From Planctomycetaceae bacterium (lineage in GTDB: Bacteria > Planctomycetota > Planctomycetia > Pirellulales > PALSA-1355): 64,000 nt of DNA. The position numbers were made by a program, and so were the translations under genes. Location of the stretch: positions 190-64,189 of the forward strand of contig PLYM01000213.1 in assembly GCA_003153375.1 (NCBI GenBank), written 5' to 3'. Of this stretch, positions 2,256 to 56,706 are shown one piece after another. Under the pieces are notes generated by a model. That model had not been told where the DNA came from. It saw nothing but the letters and a program-made list of their open reading frames with translations, and did no database searches. Within the stretch, counting starts at the first letter, position 1. Every line of letters starts with the position of its first letter.

Positions 2256-2882
2256 ATGACGAGCCAGATGAATCATTTGTTGGCGGTTGGGGCGATGTTG
2301 GGCGTGTTGATGGTTGGCACGCATTCGCACGCGGCGGGAGGCGGGCACGGCGGAGCGGGACACAGCGGCGGAAGTAGTGCCGGGGGTCAGGGTGGTCACG
2401 CGCATCACGGAAATTACGATGCCCATCACGTACACCATGATCGGCACAACGTGCAGCACGATCGGGCCAACGTGGCCAAGGATCGGCAGCAAATTCAGAG
2501 CCAGGCCAACAAGCTGCAGGGTGACGGCAAGAAGCTGGGCAGCGATTGGCAGCAATTGCAGACCGATCGAGCCAACGGCAACACGGCGGCCGTGGCGGCC
2601 GACCAGGCGAAGCTGCGCGGCGACATGCAGACGTACCGCAGCGACCGTAACGCGCTGCACCAGGACGAACGAAACCTGGGCCGCGACGAACACAACCTGC
2701 GCCACGATGAACACAGGCTGCACCACGACGAGCGCAATTTAGCGCGCGATCGTCGCGAAACCGAGCTCGGCCAGGGCCATGTGGTCTCCGGGCCCGTGCA
2801 GGCATCGACACCCGTGACGACGACCACCACGCACCCCATCACGACGACGGTGCCGACGACGCTAACGGGGGCGGGGAATTAG
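2256..2882 (+). CDS. secreted His-rich heptad-repeat protein (208 aa)
   Basis: ATG 2256 with 'GGGAGAGA' upstream is preferred to the track start at 2196, because it places a signal peptide at the N-terminus ('LLAVGAMLGVLMVGTHSHA'). A Gly/His stretch with HH pairs follows (residues about 27-60). Residues about 60-175 are charged coiled-coil-like sequence with 7-residue repeats of the type 'DEHNLRH', 'DEHRLHH', 'DERNLAR'. The tail is Thr-rich. It may bind metal ions or act as an envelope spacer; both are inferences. The stop codon runs straight into a 7-nt repeat array. Confidence 0.75.
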   Translation: MTSQMNHLLAVGAMLGVLMVGTHSHAAGGGHGGAGHSGGSSAGGQGGHAHHGNYDAHHVHHDRHNVQHDRANVAKDRQQIQSQANKLQGDGKKLGSDWQQLQTDRANGNTAAVAADQAKLRGDMQTYRSDRNALHQDERNLGRDEHNLRHDEHRLHHDERNLARDRRETELGQGHVVSGPVQASTPVTTTTTHPITTTVPTTLTGAGN

Positions 2883-2945
2883 TAGTGGTTGGTGATTAGT
2901 GGATAGTGAGGGCAGGGATTGGGGATTAGGGGCTAGCGGTAAGGA
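2883..2945. repeat. degenerate 7-nt repeat array, G-rich arm (TAGTGGN)
   Basis: Directly after the TAG stop of the His-rich gene the sequence splits cleanly into heptamers: TAGTGGT, TGGTGAT, TAGTGGA, TAGTGAG, GGCAGGG, ATTGGGG, ATTAGGG, GCTAGCG, GTAAGGA. It faces a pyrimidine-rich heptamer array at 2973-3042. The same TAGTGGT-TGGTG vocabulary recurs at 51462. Confidence 0.7.
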
Positions 2946-2972
2946 AGACGCTCACTGCAGCCCGTTATCTTT

Positions 2973-3042
2973 GCTGCCTCCGGTCTCCAGTCTCCCGCCT
3001 CCTCTTCGGTACCTTCGGCCTACAGCCTACAGTCTTCAGCCT
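2973..3042. repeat. degenerate 7-nt repeat array, C-rich arm (NNNGYCT)
   Basis: Ten consecutive heptamers mostly end in CCT or TCT: GCTGCCT, CCGGTCT, CCAGTCT, CCCGCCT, CCTCTTC, GGTACCT, TCGGCCT, ACAGCCT, ACAGTCT, TCAGCCT. On the minus strand this is an AGRCYGN series that starts at the stop codon of the PhnD-like gene (3041-3043). The intergenic space between these two convergent genes is therefore almost entirely heptamer repeat. Confidence 0.65.
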
Positions 3043-4195
3043 ATTTGCTCTCGTCTTCGGTGGGCGGGCTTTCGGTCTTGGCGCGGAGGCGCTGGCCGAA
3101 GCGGGGATCGAAGGCGTCGTCGATGTTGCGGACGAATTCGAAATCGCGCTTGTAGTCGATGGGCAGGAAGCGAAGCGGCTTGCCCGAGATTTCGTCGGGG
3201 GCGCCCTTCTGGTTCTCGAAGTCGGTGATGGCGAGGGTGATCTTGCCGGCCAGTGCCGGTTGCAGCTGGTGAACGGTGCCGATCGTGAGGTGGGGAATCA
3301 CTTTCGACTGATAGATCGTGTGAAAGTCGGACTCGGCGACGCGGCCGCGCTTGATTTGGCTTTGCACCTTGTCGTCGGAGAGCGCCGCCACTTCGATCTC
3401 GCCGGCGGCCAGCCGATGAATCGACTCGGACTGGCCGAACGACCAGCTCACCGAATAATCGCTCGCCGGTCGCAGGCCGGCCTCGCGCATCAGCACGGCG
3501 ACGGCGGCCCGATACCCCGTGATTGAGTCGGGGCGGGTGCAGGTCAGCACGTGCCCGCGCAATTCGGCCAGGCTCTTGATCTTGCTCTTGGTCGAGACCG
3601 CGATGTCGAGCCGATTGCCCTGGGCTCCGGCCTCGGTGCCGAGCACGGTGCAGGGAATGAAGCCGGCATTGTTGACCAGGTTGGGCGTGTCGGCCGAGTG
3701 CAAGGCCACGATGTGAATCTTGCCCGCCTTGACGGCCGAGACGTCGTGGACGCTGCCTTCATATTCCTGGAGCACGACCTCGCGATCGGTGGCCTGGGCC
3801 AGAATGGCGCGGAGCCCGTCCCAATCGACCGGCGGCGCGTCGGCCTCGAGGTCGACATTGTGGGCCAGCACCAGCGTCTGAGGGTCGAGCAGATCGGCGG
3901 CGCTCGTGGGCGCGTCGGCCAGCAGCCGGCCCTGCTTGTCCGTATACTCGGGCGACAGCCGCTTGCGCATCGGCGCGATCACGCCCTGCGACGCCACCAG
4001 CCGGTTCTCACTCGCCGTCGCCACGGCCCGATCCTGCTGCAACTTGAACATCCCCAGCAGCGCCACGATCACCACCGCCGCCAAACCCAAATAGAGCGAA
4101 GATCGCACCGCCCACCGCAACTGGCCCGAAGAGGCGGAAGTGTTTTGCGAACCACGAAAACCCGGTCCGACCGGCGAGGAAGAGTCGCTGTGCAT
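3041..4195 (-). CDS. membrane-anchored PhnD-like phosphate/phosphonate-binding protein (384 aa)
   Basis: Periplasmic binding-protein fold resembling PhnD of phosphonate ABC transporters. Residues about 27-50 form one membrane anchor ('SLYLGLAAVVIVALLGMF') with no lipobox. The domain from about residue 95 includes 'KIHIVALHSADTPNLVNNAG', 'KSLAELRGHVLTCTRPDS' and 'AAGEIEVAALSDDKV', the usual order of this fold. No permease or ATPase gene lies nearby, so it may work as a sensor, or with a transporter elsewhere. ATG at 4195. The ligand cannot be read from sequence. Confidence 0.8.
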   Translation of the reverse strand: MHSDSSSPVGPGFRGSQNTSASSGQLRWAVRSSLYLGLAAVVIVALLGMFKLQQDRAVATASENRLVASQGVIAPMRKRLSPEYTDKQGRLLADAPTSAADLLDPQTLVLAHNVDLEADAPPVDWDGLRAILAQATDREVVLQEYEGSVHDVSAVKAGKIHIVALHSADTPNLVNNAGFIPCTVLGTEAGAQGNRLDIAVSTKSKIKSLAELRGHVLTCTRPDSITGYRAAVAVLMREAGLRPASDYSVSWSFGQSESIHRLAAGEIEVAALSDDKVQSQIKRGRVAESDFHTIYQSKVIPHLTIGTVHQLQPALAGKITLAITDFENQKGAPDEISGKPLRFLPIDYKRDFEFVRNIDDAFDPRFGQRLRAKTESPPTEDESK

Positions 4196-27391: not shown

Positions 27392-29560
27392 TCAGTTGGC
27401 GTCGTCCTTGAACAGCGCTTCGTTGGCGCCGGCCTTGCCTTCGAACAGGGTCTCGATGTTGATAATCTGGTTCTTTTCGACCGTGGCGTTGCTGATGTAG
27501 TCGGAAACGAACTGGTGGCGAGGGTCGCGGCGGAAAGCGATCAGTTCTCGCATCGCCTGCCGCGCCTGCGCGAGCTTCTTTGGGTCCTTGGGTGCCGAGC
27601 CGCGTTCGGCGCCGGGGCTCTCGAAGTCGAGGAACTCCTGGAGCCGAGTGGACAGGAGGGCGTGCCGCAGTCCGGCCTGCAGAAACTCGACGCGCTGGGC
27701 AAACTCAGGCGAGGGATCCTTTCTCGCGGTCTCGAGAGCTTTGGCCAGGATCGCCTCGGCGGGACGGTAGACCTCGGGCGGATAAGCCAGGTAATGCCCG
27801 CGAATCCGTTTCAGCCTTTCCAAGGCGCCCTTGGGATCGACGCTGATGTCTCGGACGGGCGGCCGCGTGGCGGCGTAGTTTTCCCAATAGTCGAAATATT
27901 GTTGGACGTCGGCGGCGGCAGGCCCGAACGCGGAAAAATACTCCTGCCGAATCGTTTCGATCTCCAGATCGGGGCTCCACAGCAGGCGATGGTGCATGTA
28001 GGCCATCGGTCCATGAGCGGCCCAACTGAAGGTGTAGGCACGAAGGCTGATGCCGGCCATGCCGTGTTGATAGGCGAAGCGGAAGAATTCTCCGCTCTGC
28101 CGGCTGGTGATGTTGGGCGTTACGTAGCTGTTCAATAAGTAGTTGGATCCGTTGACCAGCGACATGCCGGTCTGGCTCCAGGCCAGCCATTGGTCGCGAT
28201 ACCACTGGTCTTCCTCACGGCTCATCGGATACCAGCCATCGCGCGATCCGTAGATGACGAACTCTCCAAAAATGTTTTTGTCGAGCTTGATTCCGCTGAG
28301 CGGCCCCGGCAGGGTGTTGTGATAGAGATAGACGCCGATCTTTACCCGCGGGTTGCGCTCGACGGCCAGGTCATGCACCGCTTTCCAATAATGGGCATAG
28401 CGATCGCCCATGGCTCGCGGGGTGTATTTCAGGAGTCGAAAGTCCTCGGGGAAATCGGTGGGCTGCGGACCGTCCCAGGCCAGGCATTGCGGGCATTGGC
28501 ACATGCTCTCGCCCCCGGCGTCGGCTTCGCCGAGGGTCAACACATCGCCGCCGTCCCAGGCCTTGTTCACGATCGCGTGCTGCAACTCGACGTTGGAAAC
28601 GCAGAGCGGAGTCCAGGCGCCGGCGCGGGGCGTCTTGAGTCCGCGCTGGCCGTCGGCGCGCATGGCAAACCACTCAGGATGTTGCTGGCCATACTCGGCC
28701 CACCAATCAGTGATGCCGGCGATGACGTGCGAGCCCAGGATCACGCGCGGCTGCTCGATTTGCGTCACGCGGCGATGTCGGCGATGGAAGATCTCCACGG
28801 CCTTGCCATAGGTGTAGCCGGCCTGCTCGCTGGGAAACACGAGCTTGCTGACGACCTCTTCCGACAGCCCGCCGACCTTATAGTTGCGCGGCACTTTGCG
28901 GCCGAAGTAGGAGCCGGTCAGGAAAATTTGCCCCAGATCCCATCCGCCCAGATTGCGGTAGAGCAGCTTGGGTTTGACGGTCTTGTTGACCGCGGGAAAC
29001 ACGGCACTCGTTCGACGCGGCACATAGGTTCCCAGTTCGCCCGGCCAGAGCCAGCGCACGCCGAGATGATCTTCCAACAATTCGTACACGCCCAGCAACG
29101 TCCCGCTGTGTACGCACTCCATGGCCAGCGGATTCCACGGCTCCGAGTAGAGCGGTCGGGTGCCGTGATACTGATCGGGCAGCAGTTCTTTGCCGACGAT
29201 ATACAAGTCGTTGCCGACAGTGCGCAGCACGTACTCTTCGACCTCGAGCTGGTCGGCATCGATGCCTTGCTGGCGGGCGGCCTCGCTGACGCCGATGAAG
29301 ATTCGGCGGTCGTAGCCCGCGGGGATCTCCGTTTCCACGGCGACCGGCAATTGCTGGCCGGTGGCTTTCTTGACGTGGCTGATCAGTTCCTCGGCGGCAT
29401 AGGCGGCGACCGGCGACGGTTTGACCGCAGTGACTACCACGGCGCGGGCCTTGCCGTCGCGCACGAGGGTGACTTGCGAGAAGGCCGCGTCCTCACCGGT
29501 GCGGAGAGACAATGCAGCGAGCGCTATCAGGAAGATTGCGAGGCGGATCAGGCGGGTCAT
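27392..29560 (-). CDS. secreted DUF4838 protein, alpha-glucuronidase-like (722 aa)
   Basis: ATG 29560 ('MTRLIRLAIFLIALAAL') gives a signal peptide; the 53 extra residues of the track ORF are non-coding. Residues about 35-150 form a glycosidase-associated N-terminal domain ('AAYAAEELISHVKKATGQQLPV', 'RIFIGVSEAAR'). The DUF4838 barrel-like part includes 'SGTLLGVYELLEDHLGVRWLWPGELGTYVP' and the Cys pair 'CQCPQCLAW'. The family is related to GH67-type enzymes and common in planctomycetes. A periplasmic polysaccharide-degrading role is probable; the substrate is unknown. Confidence 0.85.
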   Translation of the reverse strand: MTRLIRLAIFLIALAALSLRTGEDAAFSQVTLVRDGKARAVVVTAVKPSPVAAYAAEELISHVKKATGQQLPVAVETEIPAGYDRRIFIGVSEAARQQGIDADQLEVEEYVLRTVGNDLYIVGKELLPDQYHGTRPLYSEPWNPLAMECVHSGTLLGVYELLEDHLGVRWLWPGELGTYVPRRTSAVFPAVNKTVKPKLLYRNLGGWDLGQIFLTGSYFGRKVPRNYKVGGLSEEVVSKLVFPSEQAGYTYGKAVEIFHRRHRRVTQIEQPRVILGSHVIAGITDWWAEYGQQHPEWFAMRADGQRGLKTPRAGAWTPLCVSNVELQHAIVNKAWDGGDVLTLGEADAGGESMCQCPQCLAWDGPQPTDFPEDFRLLKYTPRAMGDRYAHYWKAVHDLAVERNPRVKIGVYLYHNTLPGPLSGIKLDKNIFGEFVIYGSRDGWYPMSREEDQWYRDQWLAWSQTGMSLVNGSNYLLNSYVTPNITSRQSGEFFRFAYQHGMAGISLRAYTFSWAAHGPMAYMHHRLLWSPDLEIETIRQEYFSAFGPAAADVQQYFDYWENYAATRPPVRDISVDPKGALERLKRIRGHYLAYPPEVYRPAEAILAKALETARKDPSPEFAQRVEFLQAGLRHALLSTRLQEFLDFESPGAERGSAPKDPKKLAQARQAMRELIAFRRDPRHQFVSDYISNATVEKNQIINIETLFEGKAGANEALFKDDAN

Positions 29561-51461: not shown

Positions 51462-51580
51462 TAGTGGTTGGTGGCTAGTGGTTAGAGAAGAAAACACGGA
51501 AGGGGCATGGACGAAGCTGGGGTTTGCCCGCGCTTTGTTCTTCGTCACTAACCACTAGCCACTAGCCACCAACCACTTTA
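51462..51580. repeat. facing 7-nt repeat arrays forming an inverted repeat
   Basis: The left arm reads TAGTGGT TGGTGGC TAGTGGT TAGAGAA (51462-51489). The right arm reads CACTAAC CACTAGC CACTAGC CACCAAC CACTTTA (51546-51580), the reverse complement with one extra heptamer. The right arm contains the TAA stop of the DUF1559 gene. The centre (51490-51545) is unrelated sequence. The vocabulary matches the array at 2883. Confidence 0.75.
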
Positions 51581-54926: not shown

Positions 54927-55667
54927 CTACACCCTGGGAGGACGAATGGGCGGGGCCTGATCGGCCGCCGCGACGTGCGTGCCGTCGAGAGCGAGCCACG
55001 CGACGACGTTCCATTGGAACTGCCAGGTCACGCTGGGCGGTGCCGGCACGACGGCGCCGCTTTGGCACCAGCTGTCGGCCAGGCCGCGACACTGACGTGC
55101 TTTGACGCCGATCACCAACGTGATGCCGAGCGAATCGTCATCGCGATCTTCGCAGCAACCGCTGGTGTGGTCGTGATGTTGGTGGGTTGCTACGCGGGTG
55201 TCAGAGTGGACTCGCTGAGCGGTGGACGACTCGTGCGGCGGGCAGGCACTGCTGGGCAAGCCAGCAGTGGCACACGAATGCGAATCGGTTTCGCAGGCGG
55301 CGCGGTCATGATGCGCACAGCACGATTTGCGCGGGGCCGGATGTGCCGCTGACACCTCCGCGCTCGAGTGCGGCTCGGCCTCAAGCGCGGCGACTTCGGC
55401 GATCAGCTTGGCGGGGGGCTCGACGTGATGCTCGTGGGCCCAGGCCAGTTTTTCGCGCGGAGTAAAGCAGCAGCAATGGTCCCAGCACTGCGCGGCGGTC
55501 GCGCAACCGCAGGCATGATGCTGGCACGGGAAAGCGCCGCCTGGTTTGCTGACAGCGGCCGGCAGCGGAAAGCCAATCGTGGTCGCCAGGTAAGCCACGA
55601 TTGCCAGCGTCACCACCACGCGCCGCTCGGCGGTGCGGTATCGTCGGAATGGACGCAAGCAACGCAT
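54927..55667 (-). CDS. exported Cys/His-rich protein (246 aa)
   Basis: ATG 55667 gives 'MRCLRPFRRYRTAERRVVVTLAIVAYLATTIGFPLPA', a signal peptide; the longer track ORF is shadow. A first Cys/His cluster is 'CQHHACGCATAAQCWDHCCCFTPREKLAWA', with conserved-looking spacing. A second region is rich in Cys and His ('CCAHHDRAAC', 'HQHHDHTSGCCEDRDDDS'). A hydrophobic C-terminal part follows. Metal binding (Cu, Zn or similar) in the periplasm is suggested by composition but not shown. It stands alone on the minus strand. Confidence 0.75.
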   Translation of the reverse strand: MRCLRPFRRYRTAERRVVVTLAIVAYLATTIGFPLPAAVSKPGGAFPCQHHACGCATAAQCWDHCCCFTPREKLAWAHEHHVEPPAKLIAEVAALEAEPHSSAEVSAAHPAPRKSCCAHHDRAACETDSHSCATAGLPSSACPPHESSTAQRVHSDTRVATHQHHDHTSGCCEDRDDDSLGITLVIGVKARQCRGLADSWCQSGAVVPAPPSVTWQFQWNVVAWLALDGTHVAAADQAPPIRPPRV

Positions 55668-56204: not shown

Positions 56205-56611
56205 GCCAATTCGGGCTTGGCCCGCCTTGTGGCCAGCTCGAGCCCCCGCGACAGGTTGTTGTCACAGCGATAACATCCCTGGGTCACTCACCTCGCCATT
56301 GCCCGGCCATCGGTCGGCTGGACTATTCTCTAAACTGAATCCAGACAGGTCGTTGCGCCCCAATCGCCACCTGCATCCGCCGCCAGGGCACGAACTTTGC
56401 GTTGGCTGGTAAGCGAGGCAAGAGTTCTCGGTCTTGCCGGTCGTTTGCCAGGAATCCCCCGTTTGAGCGGCAGCAGCACGCCGTAACAAATGCGCTCGCT
56501 GTGCGCCCTGGGGATCTTAGCGGCGAGCCTCCTCCCCAAATACGCTCGACCGTCAGCGGGCTCTAAGTTGTCGCCAGAGTCGTTCCCGCTGCGGTCGGGC
56601 GCTTTAAGAGA

Positions 56612-56706
56612 AGGATGAATCAGGAAGGATGAAGGATGAAAACGAGGAAAGCCAGGCAGGGTCGTCCTGGTTTTTTTATCCTTCCGCCTTCATCCTTCAT
56701 CCTTCC
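56612..56706. repeat. facing 7-nt repeat arrays (AGGATGA / TCCTTCA)
   Basis: Left heptamers: AGGATGA ATCAGGA AGGATGA AGGATGA (56612-56639). Right heptamers: TCCTTCC GCCTTCA TCCTTCA TCCTTCC (56679-56706). The arms share an exact 18-nt inverted repeat (56623-56640 with 56689-56706). The centre includes a T7 run after 'GTCGTCCTGG'. The sequence differs from the TAGTGG family but period and geometry are the same. Confidence 0.75.

What the first reader, a model, noticed from the sequence alone, without database searches (positions are those of the whole stretch)
2883..3042. Heptamer repeat arrays fill a convergent intergenic region and begin at both stop codons
Seen: nine G-rich heptamers follow the stop of the His-rich gene, and ten NNNGYCT heptamers run up to and into the stop of the PhnD-like gene. 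The sequence is degenerate but the 7-nt register is kept. This resembles the short tandem heptamers (STRR) of cyanobacteria, which I have not seen described for planctomycetes. Possible roles: transcription end structures, mRNA protection, G-quadruplexes, or decay products of a slippage-prone element.
Basis: seen in the sequence. Interest (0 to 1): 0.62.

Follow-up and report, generated by a model that had tools for sequence, protein, structure and literature searches.

The report
Inverted heptamer arrays at gene ends
Between two genes that point at each other lies one worn copy of a family of short DNA elements built from 7-letter repeats that start at the genes' stop codons; the family is scattered over this planctomycete-like genome and resembles unexplained repeats known from Xanthomonas and cyanobacteria.

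Summary
Window 2883-2945 (purine-rich) and 2974-3043 (pyrimidine-rich) have period 7 (p about 1e-4 and 5e-5), each begins at a stop codon, and the spacer has none. It is not a local oddity: in 1.98 Mb of the same genome an HMM finds 80 such arrays (2 in shuffled DNA) of five heptad types, typically 31 nt, often as inverted pairs, always purine arm first (23 of 23). They are densest between convergent genes, rare between divergent ones; 40 of 43 stop-side arrays lie within -25..+20 nt of the stop (17 expected). Paired arms match each other (p=5e-5) and many carry an inner ACGAAG box (32/80 vs 3.7 expected). One type is patchy across the order and occurs once, exactly, in a Chloroflexi MAG. Rehm et al. 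2015 (PMC4692102) reported the same layout, unexplained, for Xanthomonas and Nostoc heptamers. I read it as a dispersed inverted-repeat element whose arms are heptad arrays; spread by copying is inferred. The window copy is composite, with unmatched arms and no significant hairpin, so probably decayed. G-quadruplex, intrinsic-terminator and pure-slippage readings fit less well.

The parts
2256..2882 (+). His-rich small protein gene upstream; its stop TAG (2880-2882) abuts the left arm
   Evidence: ORF and sequence
2883..2908 (+). Left outer purine arm, type C heptads (AGTGGTT-like)
   Evidence: HMM score 27; period 7
2914..2948 (+). Left inner purine arm, type D heptads (AGGGRTT-like), shifted 2 nt in register
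   Evidence: HMM score 28
2949..2975 (.). Spacer without heptad periodicity
2976..3043 (-). Right arm; outer part type A (AGGCTGA-like), inner part type E (AGGCYGG-like), one register; an ACCGAAGA stretch between them resembles the family's inner box
   Evidence: HMM score 55; heptads listed
3041..4195 (-). PhnD-like substrate-binding protein gene; its stop TAG is part of the right arm
   Evidence: PF12974, E=1.5e-28
51462..51577 (.). Second element of the family in the window, type C arms on both sides, good hairpin
   Evidence: z -9.7 and -6.6
56610..56705 (.). Third element in the window, type B arms on both sides, good hairpin
   Evidence: z -5.2 and -5.8

Best explanation
The region is one copy of a family of short inverted-repeat elements scattered through this genome. 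Each element is a purine heptad arm (typically 31 nt), often an ACGAAG-like inner box, an unrelated spacer of roughly 15-100 nt, and the reverse complement of such an arm. The outer ends lie at gene boundaries, most tightly at stop codons, which many arms themselves supply. The most likely mechanism, in my view, is that arms are copied from place to place (transposition, or conversion between copies; the machinery is unknown), that insertions survive mainly where they do no harm, at gene ends, and that slippage and type switching then alter them. In an element with matched arms the transcript can fold into a long hairpin. The window copy is a worn composite: two arm types on each side, not matched by type, no significant hairpin. 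Shown: periodicity, dispersal, polarity, edge position, arm matching, inner box, patchy distribution. Inferred: copying as the source, tolerance at gene ends as the filter, decay of this copy.
For: 80 arrays in 1.98 Mb against 2 in shuffles; type B as 19 near-identical 36-nt copies in the genome, 0 with the pattern read backwards, with fixed heptad order, which slippage alone would not give; length peak at 31 nt; polarity 23 of 23 in this genome and about 19 to 1 in independent contigs; arms of a pair match (p=5e-5) and an inner ACGAR box in 32 of 80 arms, 3.7 expected; very uneven copy number between relatives and an exact 36-mer in a Chloroflexi MAG; between two genes at C273:52711-52853 own has 142 bp where G002 has 27 and G003 43.
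Against: No transposase or other machinery was tied to the arms (two Y1_Tnp genes exist, no clear link). No target-site duplication could be examined. Types A and C show no fixed heptad order, and D and E at most a weak one. Spacers are unrelated, so whole elements are not copies of one another; only arms could be. About half of the arrays have no detected partner. At one conserved gap relatives seem to have heptads of other words, which suggests long-lived sites rather than fresh insertion.
Confidence: 0.42

Rival explanations
1. Functional hairpins: the inverted arms fold in RNA as long stems after or between genes, ending transcription from both sides or protecting mRNA ends, and selection keeps the arms matched.
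For: Matched arms (p=5e-5) and strong folds on both strands in most same-type elements; density highest between convergent genes and lowest between divergent ones.
Against: The window copy does not fold better than shuffles and has no terminator-like site; 8 of 23 pairs have different types; arms also lie just before start codons; about half of the groups have a single arm.
Confidence: 0.25
2. Simple slippage arrays: heptamers expand by polymerase slippage and persist in intergenic DNA, with no element and no function (the proposal of Mrazek et al. as reported in PMC4692102 and PMC4679880).
For: Heptamers are the commonest long repeats in many bacteria (as reported); long perfect arrays in some relatives; no fixed heptad order in types A and C.
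Against: Length peaks at 31 nt, type B is a fixed dispersed sequence, the inner box lies outside the heptads, polarity is near-absolute and arms are paired.
Confidence: 0.15
3. Recombination joints: arms at successive gene boundaries recombine, so that whole genes are lost or gained between them, and the elements are the joints.
For: At C138:27717-27882 an element stands where G001, G002 and G003 have a dehydrogenase-like gene; about 6 of 12 elements with data sit at synteny breaks.
Against: By a hand count about 3 of 9 array-free gaps in one region are breaks too, so there is no demonstrated excess; Rehm et al. found repeat regions more stable in Xanthomonas.
Confidence: 0.08
4. G-quadruplex elements: the purine strand folds into quadruplexes near gene ends.
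For: Type D has runs of three or four G at 7-nt spacing (2914-2934 in the window); GGGAATC-type oligonucleotides form quadruplexes in vitro (PMC4692102).
Against: The consensus of types A, B, C and E has only GG doublets, so a canonical three-tetrad quadruplex is not available.
Confidence: 0.05

Closest known systems
G-rich heptamer repeats (GGGNATC, GGGGA(C/T)T) of Xanthomonas and Nostoc, Rehm et al. 2015 (PMC4692102)
   Same: Heptamer arrays of about four units, intergenic, purine strand starting next to the 5' neighbouring ORF whatever its direction, overlap with stop codons, convergent inverted pairs, few between divergent ORFs, function open
   Different: Other heptad words, mostly without G3 runs; five types side by side; arms matched within pairs and an inner ACGAAG box measured here; patchy copy number
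TAACTGA repeats of Beggiatoaceae (PMC4679880)
   Same: Dispersed intergenic heptamers, patchy across distant phyla
   Different: Those lie mostly just upstream of start codons, with one inverted repeat reported; a single unit; no paired arms
STRR sequences of cyanobacteria
   Same: Tandem heptamers in intergenic DNA
   Different: Known to me mainly from memory and from citations in the papers read; not compared sequence by sequence
REP/REPIN elements
   Same: Short dispersed extragenic units, often doubled as inverted pairs
   Different: The arm is a direct-repeat array, not a palindrome with a GTAG or CGTC tag; no RAYT link shown

Membership tests
Intergenic heptamer arrays of the Rehm 2015 kind | Tandem 7-nt units, typically four, dispersed in intergenic DNA | tested here: met
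   80 arrays, length peak 31 nt
Intergenic heptamer arrays of the Rehm 2015 kind | Purine strand begins next to the 5' neighbouring ORF irrespective of its orientation; stop overlap | tested here: met
   40 of 43 stop-side and 17 of 32 start-side arrays near the edge, 17.2 and 9.7 expected
Intergenic heptamer arrays of the Rehm 2015 kind | Convergent inverted pairs; few arrays between divergent ORFs | tested here: met
   23 pairs, all purine arm first; 7 arrays in 96 kb divergent against 22 in 38 kb convergent
Intergenic heptamer arrays of the Rehm 2015 kind | Unit GGGNATC or GGGGA(C/T)T with G3+ tracts | tested here: not met
   Only type D comes close; the other four types lack G3 in their consensus
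REP/REPIN | Palindromic unit with GTAG or CGTC tag | tested here: not met
   Arms are direct-repeat arrays
REP/REPIN | Associated RAYT transposase | tested here: inconclusive
   Two Y1_Tnp genes; one has a D-type arm and an A-type element within about 1 kb, the other none
MITE | Terminal inverted repeats | tested here: met
   Paired arms match
MITE | Target-site duplication and a transposase with the same ends | not tested
   No empty-site sequence could be fetched
Intrinsic terminator | GC-rich stem-loop followed by a T run at the window element | tested here: not met
   0 found in 2600-3300

The most novel reading that the evidence does not exclude
The arms are written by a templated process: an enzyme extends a 3' end reading TCTTCGT (the complement of the inner box) with about 31 nt of pyrimidine heptads, so both ends of an intergenic segment gain a heptad arm. 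That would account for the polarity, near-constant length, inner box, interchangeable heptad types and wide spread, and would be a new kind of DNA-writing element. No enzyme or template was found or sought in depth, and the inner box was not seen in the other genomes.
Probability: 0.08. Interest if true: 0.9.

Novelty: new variant of a known kind. Interest (0 to 1): 0.5.

Why it matters
The same unexplained grammar (about four heptads, purine strand reading outward from gene ends, inverted pairs) appears in a further, unrelated group with different heptad words, so an explanation tied to one unit such as a GGGNATC quadruplex is not enough. Five co-existing families, an inner box and very uneven copy number between relatives make the origin of such arrays testable by comparing close strains.

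Tried and rejected
The reversed-sequence control for the HMM was useless, since reversed arrays are still arrays; block shuffles were used instead. Weak period 7 at all gene edges: absent once detected arrays are removed. Stops in all three frames on the purine strand: 19 of 80 arrays against 4 in shuffles, but 7-nt periodicity itself spreads a stop over all frames and type E has none, so no stop-cassette function is claimed. Rfam: no match. Plasmids: weak partial matches only. Remnant of the lost dehydrogenase gene in the spacer of C138:27719-27877: none. PhnD orthologues in relatives: no heptad array called by the HMM in the five loci scanned, and no comparable period-7 stretch in most of eight loci. 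Gene calls are my own simple codon-usage calls; starts are less sure than stops. The HMM was trained on the same 1.98 Mb it was run on.

Full report
Check of the observation. Window 2883-2945 matches itself at lag 7 in 32 of 56 positions (shuffle mean 18.6, p=1e-4) and 2974-3043 in 37 of 63 (mean 19.1, p=5e-5); the spacer has no signal. The left arm starts directly after the stop TAG of the His-rich ORF (2880-2882); the right arm, read on the minus strand, opens with the stop TAG of the PhnD-like gene (PF12974). The left arm is a TAGTGGT-type and a TAGGGGT-type piece out of register by 2 nt; the right arm keeps its register while changing type.

Genome-wide. BLAST of the region in its own 6.70-Mb genome gave 51 places, many in inverted pairs. 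I fetched pieces, joined them with the window to 1.98 Mb, called genes by codon usage and measured lag matches: lag 7 is in clear excess in intergenic DNA. A heptad HMM with five types (A AGGCTGA, B AGGATGA, C AGTGGTT, D AGGGRTT, E AGGCYGG) found 80 arrays against 2 in block-shuffled DNA. Part of the set was chosen by large or hit-bearing contigs, so I give no genome total.

Anatomy. The 80 arrays make 56 groups: 22 '+-', one '++-', 18 '-', 15 '+', none '-+'. In contigs from the viral collection '+-' order outnumbers '-+' about 19 to 1. Length peaks at 31 nt. Stop-side arrays lie within -25..+20 nt of the stop in 40 of 43 (17.2 expected), start-side arrays within the same distance of the start in 17 of 32 (9.7 expected); 28 arrays begin before or within 2 nt of the end of the neighbour's stop codon. 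There are 22 arrays in 38 kb of convergent, 46 in 161 kb of codirectional and 7 in 96 kb of divergent intergenic DNA. Regions without detected arrays show no period 7 at their edges.

Arms as pairs. Own arms pair better than permuted arms (-39.3 vs -27.7 kcal/mol, p=5e-5); 15 of 23 pairs share a type. Most same-type elements fold well below shuffles, the window copy does not. An ACGAR box lies within 25 nt on the inner side of 32 of 80 arrays, 3.7 expected, and on the outer side of one; it was not seen in the other genomes. Type B has a fixed heptad order and 19 near-identical 36-nt copies in the genome; types A and C have no fixed order, D and E at most a weak one.

Distribution. The type B 31-mer (up to 2 mismatches) is in 16 of 247 genomes of the order, in none of the same-genus or same-family genomes, but 104, 77 and 52 times in three others. 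Type C is in own (28 matches) and the same-genus genome (21), weak in G002, absent in G003. B and C arrays share contigs, including the window, so contamination does not explain the difference. The exact 36-mer occurs once in the genome-contig collection, in a Chloroflexi MAG, as one arm of an inverted pair; misbinning of that contig was not excluded. Pieces of genome G072 carry dense arrays of many heptad words, often of different types on the two sides.

Synteny. In C138:26-41 kb an element at 27719-27877 stands where G001, G002 and G003 have a dehydrogenase-like gene of about 1 kb (in G001 the contig ends inside it). At 28659-28783 the relatives look heptad-like by eye with other words (not tested statistically). 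At C273:52711-52853 own has about 142 bp, G002 27, G003 43, and G001 about the same as own. About six of 12 elements with data sit at synteny breaks, but a hand count gives about three of nine control gaps in one region, so no excess is claimed.

Known work. Rehm et al. 2015 described G-rich heptamers in Xanthomonas and Nostoc with a preference for four units, placement beside the 5' neighbouring ORF whatever its direction, overlap with stop codons, convergent inverted pairs (70 and 75 cases in the two xanthomonads) and few between divergent ORFs, and left the function open. MacGregor 2015 described TAACTGA repeats in Beggiatoaceae with patchy spread. A satellite survey names a heptamer family in Chloroflexus. 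I found no account for planctomycetes in the open library.

Judgement. The finding is real and belongs to a known, unexplained kind, in a lineage for which I found no description and with a richer anatomy. I favour a dispersed inverted-repeat element spread by copying and tolerated at gene ends (0.42), with RNA hairpin function next (0.25) and slippage alone third (0.15). The window copy itself looks decayed.

Noticed in passing
window 55246-55279: REP-like palindrome GCACTGCTGGGCAAGCCAGCAGTGGCAC; four more copies (up to 6 mismatches) in the 1.98 Mb and about 20 matches in relative G003, several as inverted pairs 75-95 nt apart, unrelated to the heptads.
   Followed up: partly
L152:404-1285 and L153:324-794: Two IS200-like Y1_Tnp genes in the genome; no clear tie to the heptad arms.
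   Followed up: partly
window 2428-2731: The His-rich gene upstream has its own 21-nt (7-codon) repeats, a coding repeat unrelated to the intergenic heptads.
   Followed up: no
C138:27717-27882 (L098): A dehydrogenase-like gene kept in three relatives is missing and a heptad element stands in its place.
   Followed up: partly
L205-L208 (G072): A genome of another family with very dense heptad arrays of many different words at both edges of intergenic regions.
   Followed up: partly
L151:2644-3144: A contig labelled Chloroflexi carries an inverted heptad pair with the exact 36-mer and a further heptad-like array nearby.
   Followed up: partly
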